The translations under genes were made by a program, and so were the position numbers. Of a DNA stretch of 64,000 nucleotides, positions 12 through 61,112 are shown one piece after another; position 1 is the stretch's first letter, and every line of letters starts with the position of its first letter. Under the pieces are notes generated by a model. That model was not told the DNA's origin. It ran no database searches and saw nothing but the letters and a program-made list of their open reading frames with translations. Source of the DNA: Onthophagus taurus (lineage: Eukaryota; Arthropoda; Insecta; Coleoptera; Scarabaeidae); contig NC_091972.1 of assembly GCF_036711975.1 (NCBI RefSeq), forward strand, positions 28,215,001-28,279,000, read 5' to 3'.

Positions 12-203
12 TTGCTAAAATATCCTTCAGAAATCACAGCTCAATTTTTCGTAGGGCTTGGAAAAAACGCCGTTCAGTTAGCCATAGGTCTCTTCACGGA
101 ACACTGTAAGGTAAATAAGCACCTTCACAATTTGAAGCTTGCTAACTCGGATATTACATCCGAAATGTTTAAAATTCGCGAGTTCAACACATTTGAACAA
201 TAA
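12..203 (+). pseudogene. Non-LTR retrotransposon RNase H tail fragment
   Basis: The 63-residue open frame contains a VGLGKNAVQLAIGLFTEHC stretch followed by KVNKHLHNLKLANSD. This matches the pattern after the RNase H domain of insect I/R1-type non-LTR retrotransposons (LxTGHCxLNxHLHxLGLxxS). The C..C residues normally following are lost, so it is a short decayed remnant cut by the window start. No start codon is meaningful here. Family assignment is inference from pattern only. Confidence 0.5.
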
Positions 204-51359: not shown

Positions 51360-52612
51360 CAGTTAAGGAAAAAAAACAAAGTGCTTGTTCAAAAAAAAGT
51401 TAAAGAAGAGAAAAGGAAAAAAAAATGAGACAACACAACAAATCACCTTAGTTATTCAAAAACAAAAATAAATGCAATTCACAAAGAATGCCTTATCAAA
51501 AGCTATCAAAGTTAAACAAAATCTACTTTTAGATGCAACAAGCAGGGTGTAAATTTCAAGCGCGAAAATCTAAAAACACCTTTACAAACCTAAAAACCTT
51601 TTACAGTTTGATCACCCAAACAAGATGGCGGAATCTTTCAACAACTTCTTTGCCTCTGTTGCAAGCAATCTTGTGTCCAAAATAAATAATAACTCACCAG
51701 CTGATCTGGGTAACATACCTAAAAAGTGAACTTTTTAATATTGTTAATATTATTACACAGTTTTAAAGACAAACGGAGCTACGGTTATGATGAAACCCCA
51801 ATAAAAATAATTAAAGAAAGTATTTTATATATTTTAGCTCTTTTACGCTCTATTGTGAACAACTGCCTTGCACATGGAATATTTCCAAACTCACTGAAAC
51901 ACTCAATTATAACACCCATTTACAAAAAAGGTGACATATTGGTACCTGGTAGCTATAGATCAATTAGTATGCTCCCTTGTCTATACAAGATTATCGAGAA
52001 TGTTATTTACGTACGCTTTTTGGGGTATACAAAAGGTAATTCTTTACTCAGTGAAAGACAGAATGGGTTCGTTGAACTTTTTACTGATATTCTAGATGCC
52101 TACGAAAAAAATGAACACGTTTGTACTATAAGCTTGAATCTGTCTAAGGCTTTTGATTGTATAGATAAATAATTGTTGGTGGCCAAACTTGAGCGTTACG
52201 AGTTTAGAGGTCCTGCAAAACACATAATTACTTTGTATTTAAATAATAGATCACATACGACGAAAGTTATAAGTTACGAAGATGCTCCAGTAATATCAAC
52301 TACGAAGTATACAAGGTATGGAGTCTCACAGGGTAGTATACTGAGTCCTCTACTTTTCGTCATTTTTATTAATGACCTACTATTACACGACTTGAATTGT
52401 TATTTCACAAGTTATACAGACGATACTACCGTATCAGTCACCAGTTCAACTTTAAACGAAATGATGGATGAAGCTAGTAATACGTTGAATGCTCTAAAAA
52501 GTGGTTTGATACTAATAATCTAATAATGAACGAAGATAAAAGTGGGGTGATAGCCTTTGATAATAAATTGGTTAATAAACCATCTACAATCTATGATATT
52601 GAGGTACGACAT

Positions 52613-52640
52613 CACAGTGGTCCGAGCGGTAAGAAAACCC
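52613..52640 (+). repeat. Left Transib end: heptamer, 12-bp spacer, nonamer-like
   Basis: CACAGTG (52613-52619) equals the V(D)J recombination-signal heptamer. After exactly 12 bp comes AGAAAACCC (52632-52640), matching 7 of 9 positions of the consensus nonamer ACAAAAACC. Confidence 0.8.
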
Positions 52641-53716
52641 GATCGAAAATATTATTTTGGTGTTAGCAATTAGCTAGCTTTATGAAACTTGGCATGATTA
52701 TAAGACCAAAAGGATAATGTTGTGTCAAAATTTGAATTAAATTCTTCAACCGGAAGTAGTACTACGGAAGCAGTACTTTATTTAAATTCATACTCATTTT
52801 TTTTCATATAAATTAGGACTTTAAAGAAGAATATTACTATAAAATTTTGTGCAAAACATTAGACGTATATTACTTCACATTTTTTTGTGTAATTACGTGA
52901 TCGCAAATTCCTATCTAAATTGTTTTATAGAGGACCTATACCGGATGTCTCACGTAACTGGTTCGTTAGAACTTTTTTAGGTACCACTATTCGTAGCGGT
53001 TTGAAATTTTGACAACATGGGTTGTTCATTCGAAGCTTTCGATCTAAAATACTTTCAAGATGGCCGCCACTTCCGGTCTACCGGATGTAGACCACAACTT
53101 CGTTATTTTAAATGGAATGCTATAGTTTTTAATGCACCTTTTAATTATATTCGACAAAATAAGTTGACTTTGATAAAAGTTATTGGTACCTACCATTTTT
53201 CGTTTTCGAGTTATTTTGTTTTTAAGTTTTTCTTTGGCAAATTACTTTATGCTCTTTAAAACCTTATATCTCAGCCAACGTTCATTCAAAAAAGCTCTAA
53301 ATTGGCACGATTACTCTTGAGATGTTGACAAACAGATTGTCATTTGTTGTATTAAAGTATCTTATACAGGGTGGTCAAAAATTGAATTATCGTTTCTCCA
53401 TATTCAATGGTAAGAAAGTCGAAAATTTTAAATGGAACGCCCATATTTTTTTACCCTATCAGAAATGGAATTTGATAAAAATGTAGCAAAATTAATTGGC
53501 AGAATCAGTTGGTTAGATAGCTCAATTTTACTTAGCTTTTACTAAAAATCTTTTAAGAACTATTCGAGAATAAACTCATCGCTCTTAATTTGAAGTGATA
53601 TTGGAGACCATAATACGTAAGATTGATGCCTACTTATAGTAGAATTTTCCCATGATACTGAAATAGTCCACATACATTTCAAATTATTCGAGATAATATA
53701 AAATATTTTGTTATAT

Positions 53717-56026
53717 TCACCAACATAACAAAATTTTTCTCAATTTGTGTGAGTCTTCTTCATTTTCTAGGTCTTGTTCCTCTATATTTACTTCTTCTTC
53801 ACTTTCTTCATCATCATCATCTTCTTCTTTACCTTCCTCTTCTTCTAGAGATTTGTCCAGTATAAGTAAATTTTTCATGTCTTCATTCATATTTTTATAT
53901 CTTTCTGAACATTCTTTATAAAAGTTACTAATAAATGGATCGGAGCTCAGTAATAGTCTTTTAAATAAATCTTCATTTGTTTGAAGTCTACCACATTTTC
54001 TTGTGTGACACTCTCTAAATCTGCGTACTTGTTTGTTTTTTGCTTCTTGAGCCTCTTCAGAAAGCTCTCCAATGGGTAATAGCGACTCTTTAATTACTAC
54101 AGCACCATGAATTAAAATTTTGTGCACGCTAGTAGGCATGTAGTACCACCCATAAAGGTTAACATACTTCTCTGCGGTACTAAAGCAATATGCTTCAAAC
54201 TCATTTTCTTTTATGTTATACCCACTATTTATAATACGCAGAATAACTCCAAATCGCTGGATTAATTCCGCATCAATTCCTTCAATTAAATTCCATTAAT
54301 TAATTTCTATACAGTTACACTATAATCTAGCAACTTACCTGTAATATCTGCCGATAATTCCGGATTAGCAAAAAATCGTCGCGCAGTATTTCCATCATTC
54401 GATGTTCCATAGTTTTGAAATTTTTCTTGTATAGATCTTTTTCGATCCTCCACTTTATTTCTTTGTGCTTTGGGAATCTGAACATAAAACATCTTTAGGC
54501 ATATGTTACACATAAAGCTATGTATGATAAACTGTTTACCTTCCAAGTTTTAATTTCTAGCCTGTAGGCTATGTGAAGCAAACACTCAAAAAATCGAATG
54601 TAAGCGTGCAGAACTGACAGACCAAATTTAAAACCTTCTGGGTCTAACGTTCTTGCACGCAAATCATTAAGATTATTCATCTCTGAGATTTTTGCTTTAC
54701 ATATATAACATTTCATGCCAGATGACTCCATTAAGGAATTACAAACCTACAAAATAAACAAACAACTCAAATAAAGTTCTAAGAAAACAAAGTAGTTTAG
54801 AACCTTTCCATCAACTATCGTCAAATAAAGAGAAAAGTTTACAATTCCACAATTGAAATTGTATGGTTGAACTTTCTCTATTTGGTCCGAAATATACTTC
54901 TCTTCGCTTTTTATAATTTTATTATTTTCATGAACCCATTGCAGCCTAATTGGCCTACAAAACCGTATGGATGATGGTCGCGGATTCTTCCACACTATTT
55001 TCTTATTATTGTCTTCTAGTCGTAATGGAACTAGTGACGATAGAAATAGAGAGTCATCTTTTCCCTCAGAATTATTTTGATACTTTTGTTTGTAAGTAGC
55101 ATGACTTCCGCTACCATCAAACCCCCATTTACAATGTAACGTTAAATTACATTTTATTTCTGAACGCACGTTTGAACATTTCAATATTTTTTCACATGTG
55201 TTGTTCAACAAACTTTGCAAATCAATTTCGTAAACTGTTTCAGTAATTTTTATCCCTTCTGGGTATGCCTCTTTTTTGCATTTTAAAACGTCACAGTATG
55301 GGGGGTATAAGTCATATCCATGTCCAATAGCGGTCTCTCGAAGCTTTAAATATTGATTCTTAGTTAAATTAAGAGATATTATTAAGTTAAGAGCTTCCTC
55401 GGCAGTCAATCGAGTTTGCTCTGGTTTTTCCGATTTCCACATTGTTAACATTTTTTTTGCTCTGTTTGGAGTTGTTGTCGTTGCCTCCTTAAGCAAAGCA
55501 GCTTCAGCCGATTTCCCTTCTTCACGCAGTTTCATCGTTGTGGCAAATGATAGTTCTGCCGAAGTTACGGTCTTGCGCATTTGTTCTGTCCTTCTTCGTT
55601 TTACAATAACTGACGAAGATTCAAATTCTTTTTTGGTACGACCACGAAAACCTATTTTATGTTACAGCGAATATAGAATCATAGATCATACATTGTTTAA
55701 ATATATCATTGGTACTTACCAGAAGCACATTCAGCGGATGGTCGGTTTACAGTTCGAACACTTGGAGAAAAACTATTTTTTTTTTCAACCACTCGCTGTG
55801 TTTAGCGCGAAATTTTGTGTCGCTACGACCACAACTTTTCCAAAACCGATAATATGTACTAAAAAGCTGTTTTTCTACACACCGATGCAGGTTTTCGGTA
55901 TCCATGTTGTTAGTGGTTAAATAATAATTGTCTATCAATTTTAAAACAGTTTTTTTTTTCAATCATCGGCTGATTCCCACAAGATTTTATTCTGTCGTGA
56001 AGCGCTTCGCGTGTTATGCTCGACAT
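53717..56026 (-). CDS. RAG1-like Transib transposase, five exons
   Basis: Exons: 56026-55720, 55651-54804, 54746-54540, 54477-54339, 54279-53717. All introns are GT-AG with consistent phases, giving about 687 residues. Landmarks shared with the RAG1 core: HCKWGFDGSGSH (first D, about 55117), SLYLTIVDGK (second D, 54810-54812), CYICKAK (CxxC zinc pair), HAYIRFFECLLHIAYRLE, GNTARRFFANPE, SVHKILIHG (H-x4-H pair), and SEEAQEAKNKQVRRFRE (catalytic E, about 54045). An acidic tail follows. Only two 10-A runs in exon 1 (about 55950-55959 and 55776-55785) break frame, by plus one and minus one. The protein cuts at CACAGTG ends and moves the element; whether it is expressed is not known. Confidence 0.88.
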
Positions 56027-56047
56027 GTTGCAAGTATTTAGCGAAAT

Positions 56048-56202
56048 CTAACGTAAACTAACGCTAACTAAAGCTAATAAAAACTAACAAAAATCAACAA
56101 GCAACGATAACTAACAGTAACTAACAATAACTAACGATAACTAACAATAACTAACGATAACTAACGATAACTAACAATAACTGACAATAACTAACAATAA
56201 TA
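56048..56202 (-). repeat. Tandem 10-bp repeat upstream of the transposase start
   Basis: Ten regular units of CTAACAATAA/CTAACGATAA fill 56101-56200, with degenerate units back to 56048. On the coding strand they read TTATTGTTAG and end about 20 nt before the ATG at 56026, so they lie in the 5' UTR or core promoter. Confidence 0.85.
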
Positions 56203-57010
56203 ATCACCAACAATCCCTGCTTAGTACAAAACACTCGATTTACTTAAACCACAGATTTGATAATTAGGTTTGTTATTACTGAATGAAGACGTTACCCGTA
56301 GCAACCGGTGGACTCATGGAAGATTTGATTTTAAACGTTTTTATAAATTTAATTTTTTAATTGAAATAATAAAGGAAACTCAGTCAAATAAAATCAGGTA
56401 ACAAAATAATTAAAATGTAATTATTATTTTTATTTTTCTAAATTTTATTACATTAATGAAGAATTTAATTCAAATTTGAACATTTTTCTTAATCGTAGCA
56501 GTAAAATTAGAAGTAGAACTACTAAATAGAGTAAACTACTAAATAAATTTTTACACTTAAAATAAAAAAACACTTACGGTACTTGCGGTATAACCGGAAG
56601 AGTGGTGAAAGTGCATTTCAAATGTGTTTAGAAAATGCGAATAATATAATATAAAAACCAAAACATAGCAACAAAATAACGAAAATCATAACAAGGATAA
56701 ATAAGATCCACAATTATGTGGTAAGTAATCTTTGACTGCCAATTTTTTGGTTAAGGCGCACGTTGGCGCAAGACACAATATTTTCAAGTAGTGATATACC
56801 ATCTTGTTTTGTTTTCTAAAGTTGTGTCGTTTTCTAAAAAATTTCCTTATACAAAATAAGGTAATTGTAATAGCAATTTATTTCGCGCAGTAGCTATTAT
56901 AAAACACCAAAGACTTCATAAACTTCACTAAGAGTCTATTAATAGTTAAAATATATGTAACATTTAAAAAAACAACACTATAAAATTTTTTTTTTAATTG
57001 ATTTTCGATC

Positions 57011-57038
57011 GGGTTTTGAGTGTTTTCGGACCACTGTG
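57011..57038 (-). repeat. Right Transib end: heptamer, 12-bp spacer, nonamer-like
   Basis: On the minus strand CACAGTG (57038-57032), a 12-bp spacer, and TCAAAACCC (57019-57011), matching 7 of 9 consensus nonamer positions. Confidence 0.8.
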
Positions 57039-57362
57039 ACAGGAGATCAAGATTTTGGGTGTTCATCTTGATAGTTCTATGAAGTTTAAGTGTCACATGG
57101 AACAACTCTGTTATAAGCTATCAAAATCTATATTTGGTCTTAGAGTGATTAAAAATACAACTAACAAAAAGATTGCCAAGATTTTTTATTCTAGTAACAT
57201 CGAATCACATTTAAGTTATTGAATAATTACGTGGGGAGCATCTGTACAGTTCGGTAATGTCTGTAAACTTCAGAAAAAAGCGATAAGAGCCTGCCTAAAC
57301 ATAGGTTAAATTTATATGAAAAAGGTCCCTTGTATTCATGTGTGAAAATCTGAAATAACATG

Positions 57363-58908: not shown

Positions 58909-61112
58909 TCCTAGGATGCATAAACCGGCGAGATTTTAGTTACTCATAATTTTCTTAAAATAATTTCAATCGGCTTGAGCATTTAGATATGCTCTAAACA
59001 CCTCTTTATTCAATACACACTTGATTCAAAAACATTCCAGTGTAATTAGCAATCGAAAAAAAAATCGTTTCCATTAGCACCCCACACTGCTGCGCGGAAT
59101 TGTACGTGCCTATGTAAATTAAAACGTGCATTATTGTTGGATGTATAAAAGTAGGGGCAGCTGTTTTTCATTCAGTTGGAATAGAAGTTGGATTGAGTGA
59201 ACTTGTGAGATACATATGATAATGGCGTCAAAAAGGAATGTGAAAAGCGTGAGATTTGGTGACCCCGGTTATGAAGAAATATTGGTGCAGTGGGCAGCTG
59301 AATGTGATGATCTGACTTCTGAAGAAAGTGATGTGTCAGAAGCCGAGTATTCTGGATCCAGTTCTGATCATAGCGATGATAATTCAGAGGATGATGTTGA
59401 TCATATTGGTAAGCCTTTAACGAGCGGTTACATTGCTCCAAGTGGTCTGATATGGAGTTTGGAACCTCCAGCAAAAAATAAAATTCAACCACACAGCATT
59501 ATTCGGCGTGCGCCAGGACTAGCAAGGAAACATATGGCTGCAACACCAAAAGAAGCGTTTCAGTTATTTGTAACTCCAGTTATTGTACAAGAAATTGTGA
59601 ACTGTACTAATTTAGAGGGCAAACGTGTTTATGGAGCAAAAGGAAAACCATGGCAAGATGTAACTGTTGATGAATTTCTTGCATTCTGTGGTTTACTTAT
59701 TCATGCGAGGGTTGACAGAAGCTGGGATGTTCCTGCGAGAGAATTATTTTGTGATGAATTTGCCAATCCTGTATACCGAGCCACAATGTCCATATTTCGC
59801 TTTGAAGAAATTGAAGATTCGTCAGATTTGACGACAAGAGAACCCGGAATGTGCGTTTGGAAACCGATAAGTTAGCAATGGTGTCCTACATTTGGGATTT
59901 ATTCATTCAGCAATGCAAAACCTGCGTCATACCTGATACTAATGTAACTATTGATGAACAACTCGTTGGGTTTAGAGGTAGATGCACATTCGTTCAATAT
60001 ATGCCAAGTAAACCGGCAAAATATGGACTTAAAATATTTTGGATGTGTGAATCTACGTCTGGGTATGCTTTGGATGGTTTAGTTTATGTTGGTCGCCAGA
60101 TCGGTGAACCTCCACATAAAAACCTGGGGCTTGAAGTAGTACAAACTCTTGTGCGTGGCATTCATAATTCTGGTCGCAATCTCACGATAGATAATTTCTT
60201 CACTAGTGTTCCGCTAGCAACTTATCTGTTGAATAAAAATACTACTGCTGTGGCTACACTACGTCAGAATAAGCGTGACATTCCGAAAGAAATGAAAGCT
60301 TCAAAAGATCGTGTAGTCTACTCTTCATTGTTTTGTTTTCAAAATAACATATCCATGGTATTAAGCACGTAAAAAGAACAAATGCGTAATTTTACTAAGC
60401 ACCATGCACCACGACGCATCTATCAATGACGACGCTAAGAGGAAGCCTGAAATCAGCTTTCATTATAATAAAACAAAGGGCGGTGTTGACATCATGGATC
60501 AAATGGTGTCGACATACATGTGCAAGAGGCAAAGTAAACGATGGTCCATGACATTTTTCTTCAACATCATTGATGTTGCAGCACTCAATGCATATATAGC
60601 CTTTACGAGGGAACATCCAAACTACAACATAGGAGTGACTCACAAACGCAGAATGTTTTTGAAAGATTTAGTGAAGGAACTAGTGATACCACATATGCAG
60701 AGAAGATCTACGAACCCTACCCTACGGCGTACTGTCCGGGAGTGTATGAGCAGATTTATTGATATATGTAGTCCGCCAGCCGCTCAAATAAGTGCAATAA
60801 TTAAGAGAAAATGATGCTCAGTATGTCCCGCAAGTATTGATCGTAAAAGCACAATGATATGTATTACTTGTAAAAATAATATCTGTAATGAGCATAGTAT
60901 TAGAATGTGCACTAAATGCTTCTCTAATCCCTAAAAACAATAAACAATAATGTTTTTTTAACAATAATGTTCACTTTCATATTTAACCTCACGTTTGTAA
61001 CGTACATATGTATAAATAAATAAAATTTTACTTCAATAATTTTGTTTCTGTTCTGACTACACGTGATTTTATATAACGGGTCTCAGAAGCCCGGATTATG
61101 TAAATCCTAGGG
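58909..61112 (+). mobile_element. piggyBac transposon
   Basis: The right end ATCCTAGGG is followed by TTAA (61113-61116). The left end TCCTAGGATGCATAAACCGG (58909) is preceded by TCAA, a one-base decay of TTAA. The inverted termini share CCTAGGAT and CCGG words. Length is 2204 bp with one transposase gene. Confidence 0.82.
59216..60931 (+). pseudogene. piggyBac transposase
   Basis: The acidic N-terminus (SEESDVSEAEYSGSSSDHSD) is followed by EAFQLFVTPVIVQEIVNCTN and FLAFCGLLIHARVDRSWDVP. The three catalytic Asp blocks are VTIDEQLVGFRGRC (near 59952), NLTIDNFFTSVP (near 60188) and GGVDIMDQM (near 60490). Frameshifts fall near 59850 and between 60310 and 60400. After KRK a TGA at 60812-60814 is followed in frame by CSVC...CITC...C..H...CTKCF to a TAA at 60929-60931: the Cys-rich C-terminal finger that binds the ends. 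All domains are present, but the copy is disabled. Confidence 0.87.

What the first reader, a model, noticed from the sequence alone, without database searches (positions are those of the whole stretch)
52613..57038. Transib element whose two ends read as 12-spacer recombination signals
Both termini show CACAGTG, exactly 12 bp, then an A/C nonamer-like block (AGAAAACCC and TCAAAACCC, each 7/9 to ACAAAAACC). The transposase inside keeps the RAG1 landmarks: three acidic residues, CxxC and H-x4-H. It is established that Transib is the relative of RAG1 and has heptamer-like ends. A nonamer-like block at the same 12-bp distance on both sides is a sharper resemblance and would bear on how the signal and the 12/23 rule arose.
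Basis: partly seen in the sequence, partly recalled or inferred. Interest (0 to 1): 0.88.

Follow-up and report, generated by a model that had tools for sequence, protein, structure and literature searches.

The report
Transib ends with three AT-rich tracts
This is an ordinary, damaged Transib jumping gene, a relative of the enzyme that shuffles antibody genes; set beside 16 other Transib families in the same genome, the short block 12 letters from its tips falls on the middle one of three AT-rich patches about one DNA turn apart, and the patch that likely acts like the immune system's nonamer lies 22-23 letters in, at both ends.

Summary
Window 52613-57038 is a Transib element, and both ends read CACAGTG, 12 bp, AGAAAACCC or TCAAAACCC (7/9 to the RSS nonamer). 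The "12-spacer signal" reading is weak for the class. Thirty representative ends of 17 Transib families in the same genome, nearly all picked by duplication plus heptamer alone, show nonamer similarity that peaks at spacers 22 (4.87/9) and 23 (4.70/9), at both ends; spacer 11 reaches 3.96 and exactly 12 only 3.56 (shuffle ceilings 3.66 at 95%, 3.94 at 99.9%). Positions 20-28 are conserved above shuffles but rank 18 of 44 windows; windows from 26-29 lead. New to me: AT-tracts at about 12-15, 21-25 and 33-36, roughly 10 bp apart; 24 of 30 ends carry both the 12-register and the 23-register tract (shuffles: mean 1.9, maximum 6). [quoted passage not shown] The window copy is a poor specimen: GRT, two frame changes, damaged duplication, weakly phased ends. 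Ends that hold both registers suggest a testable route to 12- and 23-signals; that step is untested.

The parts
52613..57038 (-). Transib element, 4426 bp (transposase on the minus strand)
   Evidence: ends and length; HzTransib matches; boundaries shared by 40 other left ends and 37 right ends
52613..52619 (+). left heptamer CACAGTG
   Evidence: CACAGTG in 39 of 41 rows listed as left ends of sister copies, one row being the right end of L049
52632..52640 (+). left 12-register block AGAAAACCC (positions 20-28; AT-tract II of the class)
52643..52651 (+). left 23-register block TCGAAAATA (positions 31-39; AT-tract III, the class-wide nonamer-like position)
57032..57038 (-). right heptamer CACAGTG
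57011..57019 (-). right 12-register block TCAAAACCC
57000..57008 (-). right 23-register block TCGAAAATC
55705..56026 (-). transposase exon 1 (ATG at 56026; two frame changes at A-runs; inner boundary approximate)
   Evidence: three-frame reading; tblastn pieces; homologue P0114
54800..55657 (-). transposase exon 2: GRTKK and NBD-like region, then first catalytic D (KWGFDG) and second D (VDGK); boundaries approximate
54540..54748 (-). transposase exon 3: CYIC zinc pair; boundaries approximate
54320..54490 (-). transposase exon 4 (NDGNTARRFF); boundaries approximate
53717..54292 (-). transposase exon 5: HKILIH zinc pair, catalytic E (SEEAQEA), acidic tail; upper boundary approximate
52607..52612 (.). 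left target-site duplication CGACA plus an extra T (inferred from the empty site)
57039..57041 (.). right target-site duplication reduced to ACA, CG lost (inferred from the empty site)

Best explanation
Window 52613-57038 is a Transib cut-and-paste transposon whose transposase family is predicted to grip each end at the CACAGTG tip and likely at a nonamer-like A-tract 22-23 bp further in, so the A/C block at 12 bp is likely the middle one of three AT-tracts about one helical turn apart and not a 12-spacer signal. Shown: the ends, the transposase homology, the 5-bp duplications of sister copies, and the three-tract pattern with its 22-23 bp nonamer peak over 17 families of this genome. Predicted: the N-terminal arm of the class (GRP motif plus helices) folds like the RAG1 nonamer-binding domain. 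Inferred: the GRP arm enters the AT minor groove at tract III; tracts I and II lie on the same face and are touched or bent in the same complex; the DDE core then cuts at CAC with a hairpin on the flank, as PMC6941560 reports for HzTransib (passage); and the cut element joins a 5-bp target. Inferred also: both ends are bound alike, so there is no 12/23-type restriction here.
For: Ends screened by duplication plus CACANTGG (195 hits against 16 for the reversed pattern). 17 families, 30 ends: nonamer match 4.87/9 at spacer 22 and 4.70 at 23, against a 99.9% shuffle ceiling of 3.94; A-content period 9.75 bp, reached in 0 of 3000 shuffles. Tracts II and III together in 24 of 30 ends. With one end from each of 8 hand-made groups the 22-23 register is significant in 300 of 300 draws, the 11-12 register in 118 of 300. 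Sister copies: 35 of 37 paired copies have identical 5-bp duplications, the other 2 differ by one base. GRP before the first catalytic motif in 94 of 109 transposases of 600 aa or more; of the 15 others, 4 had no recognisable catalytic motif to measure from. N-terminal model of L063: pLDDT 85; 13 of 17 Foldseek rows are RAG1 chains, and 3gna_A, the RAG1 nonamer-binding domain on DNA, aligns over 57 residues at 1.9 A, with the first aligned pair (model 15 on RAG1 389) setting GRP on GRP.
Confidence: 0.7

Rival explanations
1. One reading: in this family the block at 12 bp is the true nonamer equivalent, so the element carries two 12-type signals and moves by 12/12 pairing.
For: 7/9 at exactly 12 bp in both ends, better than its own 23-register match; P 0.0015 and 0.023 by shuffles; kept in 37 of 40 left and 30 of 37 right ends of sister copies. 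Across families spacer 11 reaches 3.96, exactly 12 gave P 0.0185 in the first unweighted count, and positions 20-28 are conserved above shuffles. Right end L050 has lost its 23-register block yet has an intact CGGCG duplication.
Against: Weighted by family, the match at exactly 12 is within the shuffle range (3.56 against 3.66). The register takes A-runs or T-runs. Positions 20-28 rank 18 of 44. Sister copies are too young to show selection. L052, which lacks both blocks at the right end, also has an intact duplication (CGTCT), so intact duplications beside damaged ends may show only damage after insertion.
Confidence: 0.15
2. The phased tracts bend the DNA or leave the minor groove narrow for assembly (with or without an HMG protein) and no domain reads them as a nonamer.
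For: Tract II takes A or T on the same strand, as expected for shape and not for base reading; spacing of about 10 bp.
Against: Tract III is strand-specific (A 0.79-0.85, T 0.03-0.09 at positions 34-36) and follows a GC-rich pair at 29-30, as a read motif would; the class has a conserved GRP arm.
Confidence: 0.25
3. The A-rich blocks are nothing but the AT-rich make-up of the genome or shared descent.
For: Background A 0.39, T 0.28 in these ends; families are related; grouping into families was done by hand.
Against: Within-end shuffles keep composition and never reach the pattern (0 of 3000 for the period; maximum 6 of 30 for tracts II and III in 2000 shuffles). Positions 9-11, 17-18 and 26-30 are GC-rich between the tracts. 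It holds for 8 groups with one end each in 300 of 300 draws.
Confidence: 0.04

Closest known systems
Transib superfamily (Drosophila, Anopheles; HzTransib of Helicoverpa zea, PDB 6pqn)
   Same: RAG1-like DDE transposase, CAC-heptamer ends, 5-bp duplications, nonamer-like stretch at about 20-23 bp (PMC8355894 passages)
   Different: HzTransib's solved chain starts after the NBD-like arm, and its ends, like those of most Transib families, are said to have little or no nonamer similarity (PMC8289069 passage); the three-tract pattern was not described in what I read
RSS of vertebrate V(D)J recombination
   Same: heptamer CACAGTG; A-rich nonamer-like block; two registers one helical turn apart
   Different: an RSS holds one nonamer, at 12 or at 23; 24 of 30 Transib ends here hold tracts at both registers, and the 12-register tract is a T-run in 5 of 30
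ProtoRAG / RAGL transposons
   Same: heptamer-like ends, 5-bp duplications, RAG1-like transposase
   Different: protostome RAGL ends have AAA at positions 8-10 (PMC7204232 passage) and ProtoRAG a TR5 element, GCCATCTTG, at 27/31 bp (PMC8289069 passage); no second gene was noticed here, though no RAG2 search was made
Transibs with 12/23-like asymmetry (Transib5, AgTransib2/N1-N3; PMC8355894 legend, figure not held)
   Same: family J here (L117/L118) matches best at 12 on one end (7/9) and equally in both registers on the other (6/9)
   Different: the window element is symmetric

Membership tests
Transib superfamily | transposase homologous to Transib/RAG1 core | tested here: met
   HzTransib 6pqn E 5e-37, 1e-19, 4e-15, 1e-4 for four stretches
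Transib superfamily | DDE triad and CxxC / HxxxxH zinc motif | tested here: met
   present by reading and by alignment to HzTransib
Transib superfamily | terminal inverted repeats that begin with a CAC heptamer | tested here: met
Transib superfamily | 5-bp, mostly GC-rich target-site duplication | tested here: met
   35 of 37 paired sister copies identical, 2 with one mismatch; window copy itself damaged, inferred CGACA from the empty site
Transib superfamily | no RAG2-like partner gene | not tested
   no other ORF above 126 aa inside the element apart from transposase pieces, but no kelch search was made
12-RSS | heptamer CACAGTG | tested here: met
12-RSS | nonamer ACAAAAACC 12 bp from the heptamer, as a selected feature | tested here: inconclusive
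   7/9 in this element; across 17 families exactly 12 is within the shuffle range when weighted (3.56 against 3.66), P 0.0185 in the first unweighted count; positions 20-28 above shuffles but rank 18 of 44
12-RSS | pairs only with a 23-RSS (12/23 rule) | not testable with these tools
   needs a cutting or pairing assay
RAG1-type nonamer-binding domain in the transposase | GRP arm plus three helices folded as in 3gna | tested here: inconclusive

The most novel reading that the evidence does not exclude
Each Transib end holds a nonamer site in both registers, at about 12 and at 22-23 bp, one helical turn apart on one face; the vertebrate 12-RSS and 23-RSS arose from one such end by keeping one tract and losing the other, so the 12/23 rule descends from a double grip that Transib ends already had.
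Probability: 0.15. Interest if true: 0.88.

Novelty: new member of a known kind. Interest (0 to 1): 0.5.

Why it matters
Why V(D)J signals come in two lengths that differ by one helical turn is an old question. If Transib ends carry AT-tracts in both registers, single ends can be cut down to 12-like or 23-like forms and tested with a GRP-bearing Transib transposase, which makes one route to the 12/23 rule directly testable. The genome at hand holds at least 17 Transib families by their ends and 141 transposase matches, some of them pieces of one copy, so it also offers a ready set of natural ends.

Tried and rejected
Conservation among sister copies as a test of the block: rejected, since copies are 96-100% alike over the terminal 101 bp (40 of 58 and 40 of 57 candidates scored).

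Deviant ends as proof that spacing does not matter: L080 (spacer 7 bp shorter), L052 (both blocks lost) and L049 (6 bp shorter) all have identical duplications, but the L080 and L052 forms occur once each in the genome, so they are likely damage after insertion; the L049 and L050 forms were not searched.

Ends from other organisms: Transib loci were sought in prokaryote genomes and viral contigs; 63 and 31 stretches matched a pattern and none was confirmed. The Kapitonov and Jurka 2005 paper is not held; what I say of it rests on PMC8355894 and recall. Print searches for a phased-tract description: 20 of 97 listed; 15 of 3,492 listed, none of those 15 with Transib; listings, plus passages of eight papers. 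None of what I saw describes it, but figures are not held, and the alignments in figures of PMC8355894 and PMC9435367 could show it.

Single-sequence structure of the whole L063 transposase: pLDDT 34, not used. A second duplication screen (CGNTG) gave 43 against 6 and was partly a satellite array; no ends were taken from it.

Rows dropped before the count: of the 100 places listed, 75 were read; the other 25 were copies of the window family or ends already held. Of the 75 ends and the 19 later ones, only representatives were kept: as a rule one for each family end, three for family F and two for M, whose ends I could not assign. Single hits without a partner (L096, L108, L109, L111, L129, L130, L133, L145, L153-L157, L158, L166, L177) and the variants L094, L159, L148, L122, L090 were left out. 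Grouping into families and into 8 groups was done by hand. A first, unweighted count on 23 ends gave peaks at the same spacers, 22-23 and 10-11, but there exactly 12 also passed (3.74, P 0.0185).
Full report
What is there. Window 52613-57038 is a Transib element of 4426 bp. The minus strand holds a transposase in about five exons; four stretches match HzTransib (6pqn) at chain residues 6-224, 220-282, 310-341 and 387-468, with both catalytic D, the E, CxxC and HxxxxH. Exon 1 changes frame at two A-runs, which may be real or an assembly matter.

Where it sits. The element lies in what looks by eye like a LINE reverse-transcriptase frame. It lacks a matching duplication (GACAT / ACAGG). The unoccupied form of that site, GAGGTACGACAGGAGATCAAGATT, stands at 9 places with up to 3 mismatches, 6 of them exact. 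So the duplication was most simply CGACA, a form seen also at L021; the left copy gained a T and the right copy lost CG.

Its family. Forty left and forty right ends were scored, out of 58 and 57 candidates. Of 40 regions fetched, 37 gave both ends by my motif: 35 have identical 5-bp duplications and 2 differ by one base. Most of these copies are about 2.0 kb long. In the four 2.0-kb copies of one form that I compared (L024, L030, L042, L052), the window's 54051-56695 is missing and about 0.23 kb not found in the window element stands at about window 56772. In one search the window copy is the only one of its family with a whole open match to the query; the next best is 85% identical with 5 stops.

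Test of the 12-bp block. Sister copies cannot tell, being 96-100% alike at the ends. But this genome has 141 matches to the transposase, many at 35-45% identity, some with long open frames. I therefore screened for ends by duplication plus heptamer alone, CGNCG+CACANTGG: 195 hits, against 16 for the reversed pattern. Of the first 100, which are all that is listed, 75 ends of 70 bp were read, and 19 more from a second pattern (49 hits against 1). With the window's two ends and four ends found by paired repeats beside transposases (families D and E), they give 17 families and 30 representative ends. Nothing inside position 8 (first screen) or 9 (second screen) was used to pick the screened ends; those of D and E were picked by likeness of the two ends and by duplication.

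Result. The match to ACAAAAACC, weighted by family, peaks at spacers 22 (4.87 of 9) and 23 (4.70), well above the 99.9% shuffle ceiling of 3.94; smaller peaks stand at 11 (3.96) and 2 (4.16); at exactly 12 it is 3.56, under the 95% ceiling of 3.66. The first, unweighted count on 23 ends had the same peaks, and there exactly 12 reached 3.74 (P 0.0185). By information content the window 20-28 stands above shuffles (0.31 bits, 99% ceiling 0.18) but ranks 18 of 44, and windows that start at 26-29 rank first; leaving out the window family, or W, D and E, changes nothing of note. Six of nine or better is reached at 22-24 in 18 of 30 ends (shuffle mean 2.7, maximum 9) and at 11-13 in 7 of 30 (shuffle mean 2.7, P 0.0115).

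The pattern behind it. A+T is high at 12-15, 21-25 and 33-36 and low at 9-11, 17-18 and 26-30, with a period of 9.75 bp reached in 0 of 3000 shuffles; from position 40 on the ends are AT-rich throughout. Tract II holds AAA or TTT in 27 of 30 ends, tract III holds AAA in 27 of 30, and 24 of 30 have both (shuffle mean 1.9, maximum 6). Tract I is weaker: AAA within 12-16 in 15 of 30. With one end from each of 8 hand-made groups, the order tract-gap-tract-gap-tract holds in 300 of 300 draws. Against it: end by end, phasing is significant in only 13 of 30, and the window's ends are among the weak ones (p 0.94 and 0.18). Families H and O lack tract III, and family J looks 12/23-like: 7/9 at 12 on one end, 6/9 in either register on the other.

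What is known. PMC8355894 shows symmetric 20-22 bp spacers for some Transibs and 12/23 forms for a few, after Kapitonov and Jurka 2005 (passages; that paper is not held). PMC8289069, by contrast, says that most Transib families' ends have little or no nonamer similarity (passage). So the 22-23 bp position is not new; the co-existence of two registers in one end, over families, is what I did not find in the papers seen (passages only), with figures unseen.

Verdict. The reading as 12-spacer signals is likely wrong for the class and unproven for this element. The likeliest working is a Transib that is gripped at the tip and 22-23 bp in, on a face marked by three AT-tracts; binding and cutting are inferred. 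The step from there to the origin of the 12/23 rule is a hypothesis that single-register ends would test.

Noticed in passing
L117 / L118 (G000:C2:29596326-29600794) and L124 / L125 (G000:C3:2900172-2902755): Family J looks 12/23-like: one end matches the nonamer best at 12 bp (7/9), the other at 11-13 and 22-24 equally (6/9); two copies with paired CGNCG duplications.
   Followed up: partly
window 54051-56695: Missing in the four 2.0-kb non-autonomous copies of one form that I compared (L024, L030, L042, L052), which instead have about 0.23 kb not found in the window element.
   Followed up: partly
window 56064-56200: 10-bp tandem repeat (about 10-14 units, AACAATAACT-like) just upstream of the transposase start.
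   Followed up: no
window 51726-52523 and from 57042: LINE-like reverse-transcriptase frame (by eye) split by the insertion; 9 unoccupied copies of the site in the genome.
   Followed up: partly
G000, whole genome: 141 matches to the Transib transposase, some of them pieces of one copy, several with long open frames: a Transib-rich genome.
   Followed up: partly
G000:C16:2461239-2467675: CGCTGCACACTGG recurs at multiples of 292 bp, likely a satellite and not Transib ends.
   Followed up: no
L049, L050, L052, L080, L148: Ends with lost or shifted A-blocks; the first four stand beside identical duplications; forms L052 and L080 are unique in the genome.
   Followed up: partly
window 59216-59875: 219-aa open frame that looks to me like a piggyBac-type transposase start; not searched.
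   Followed up: no
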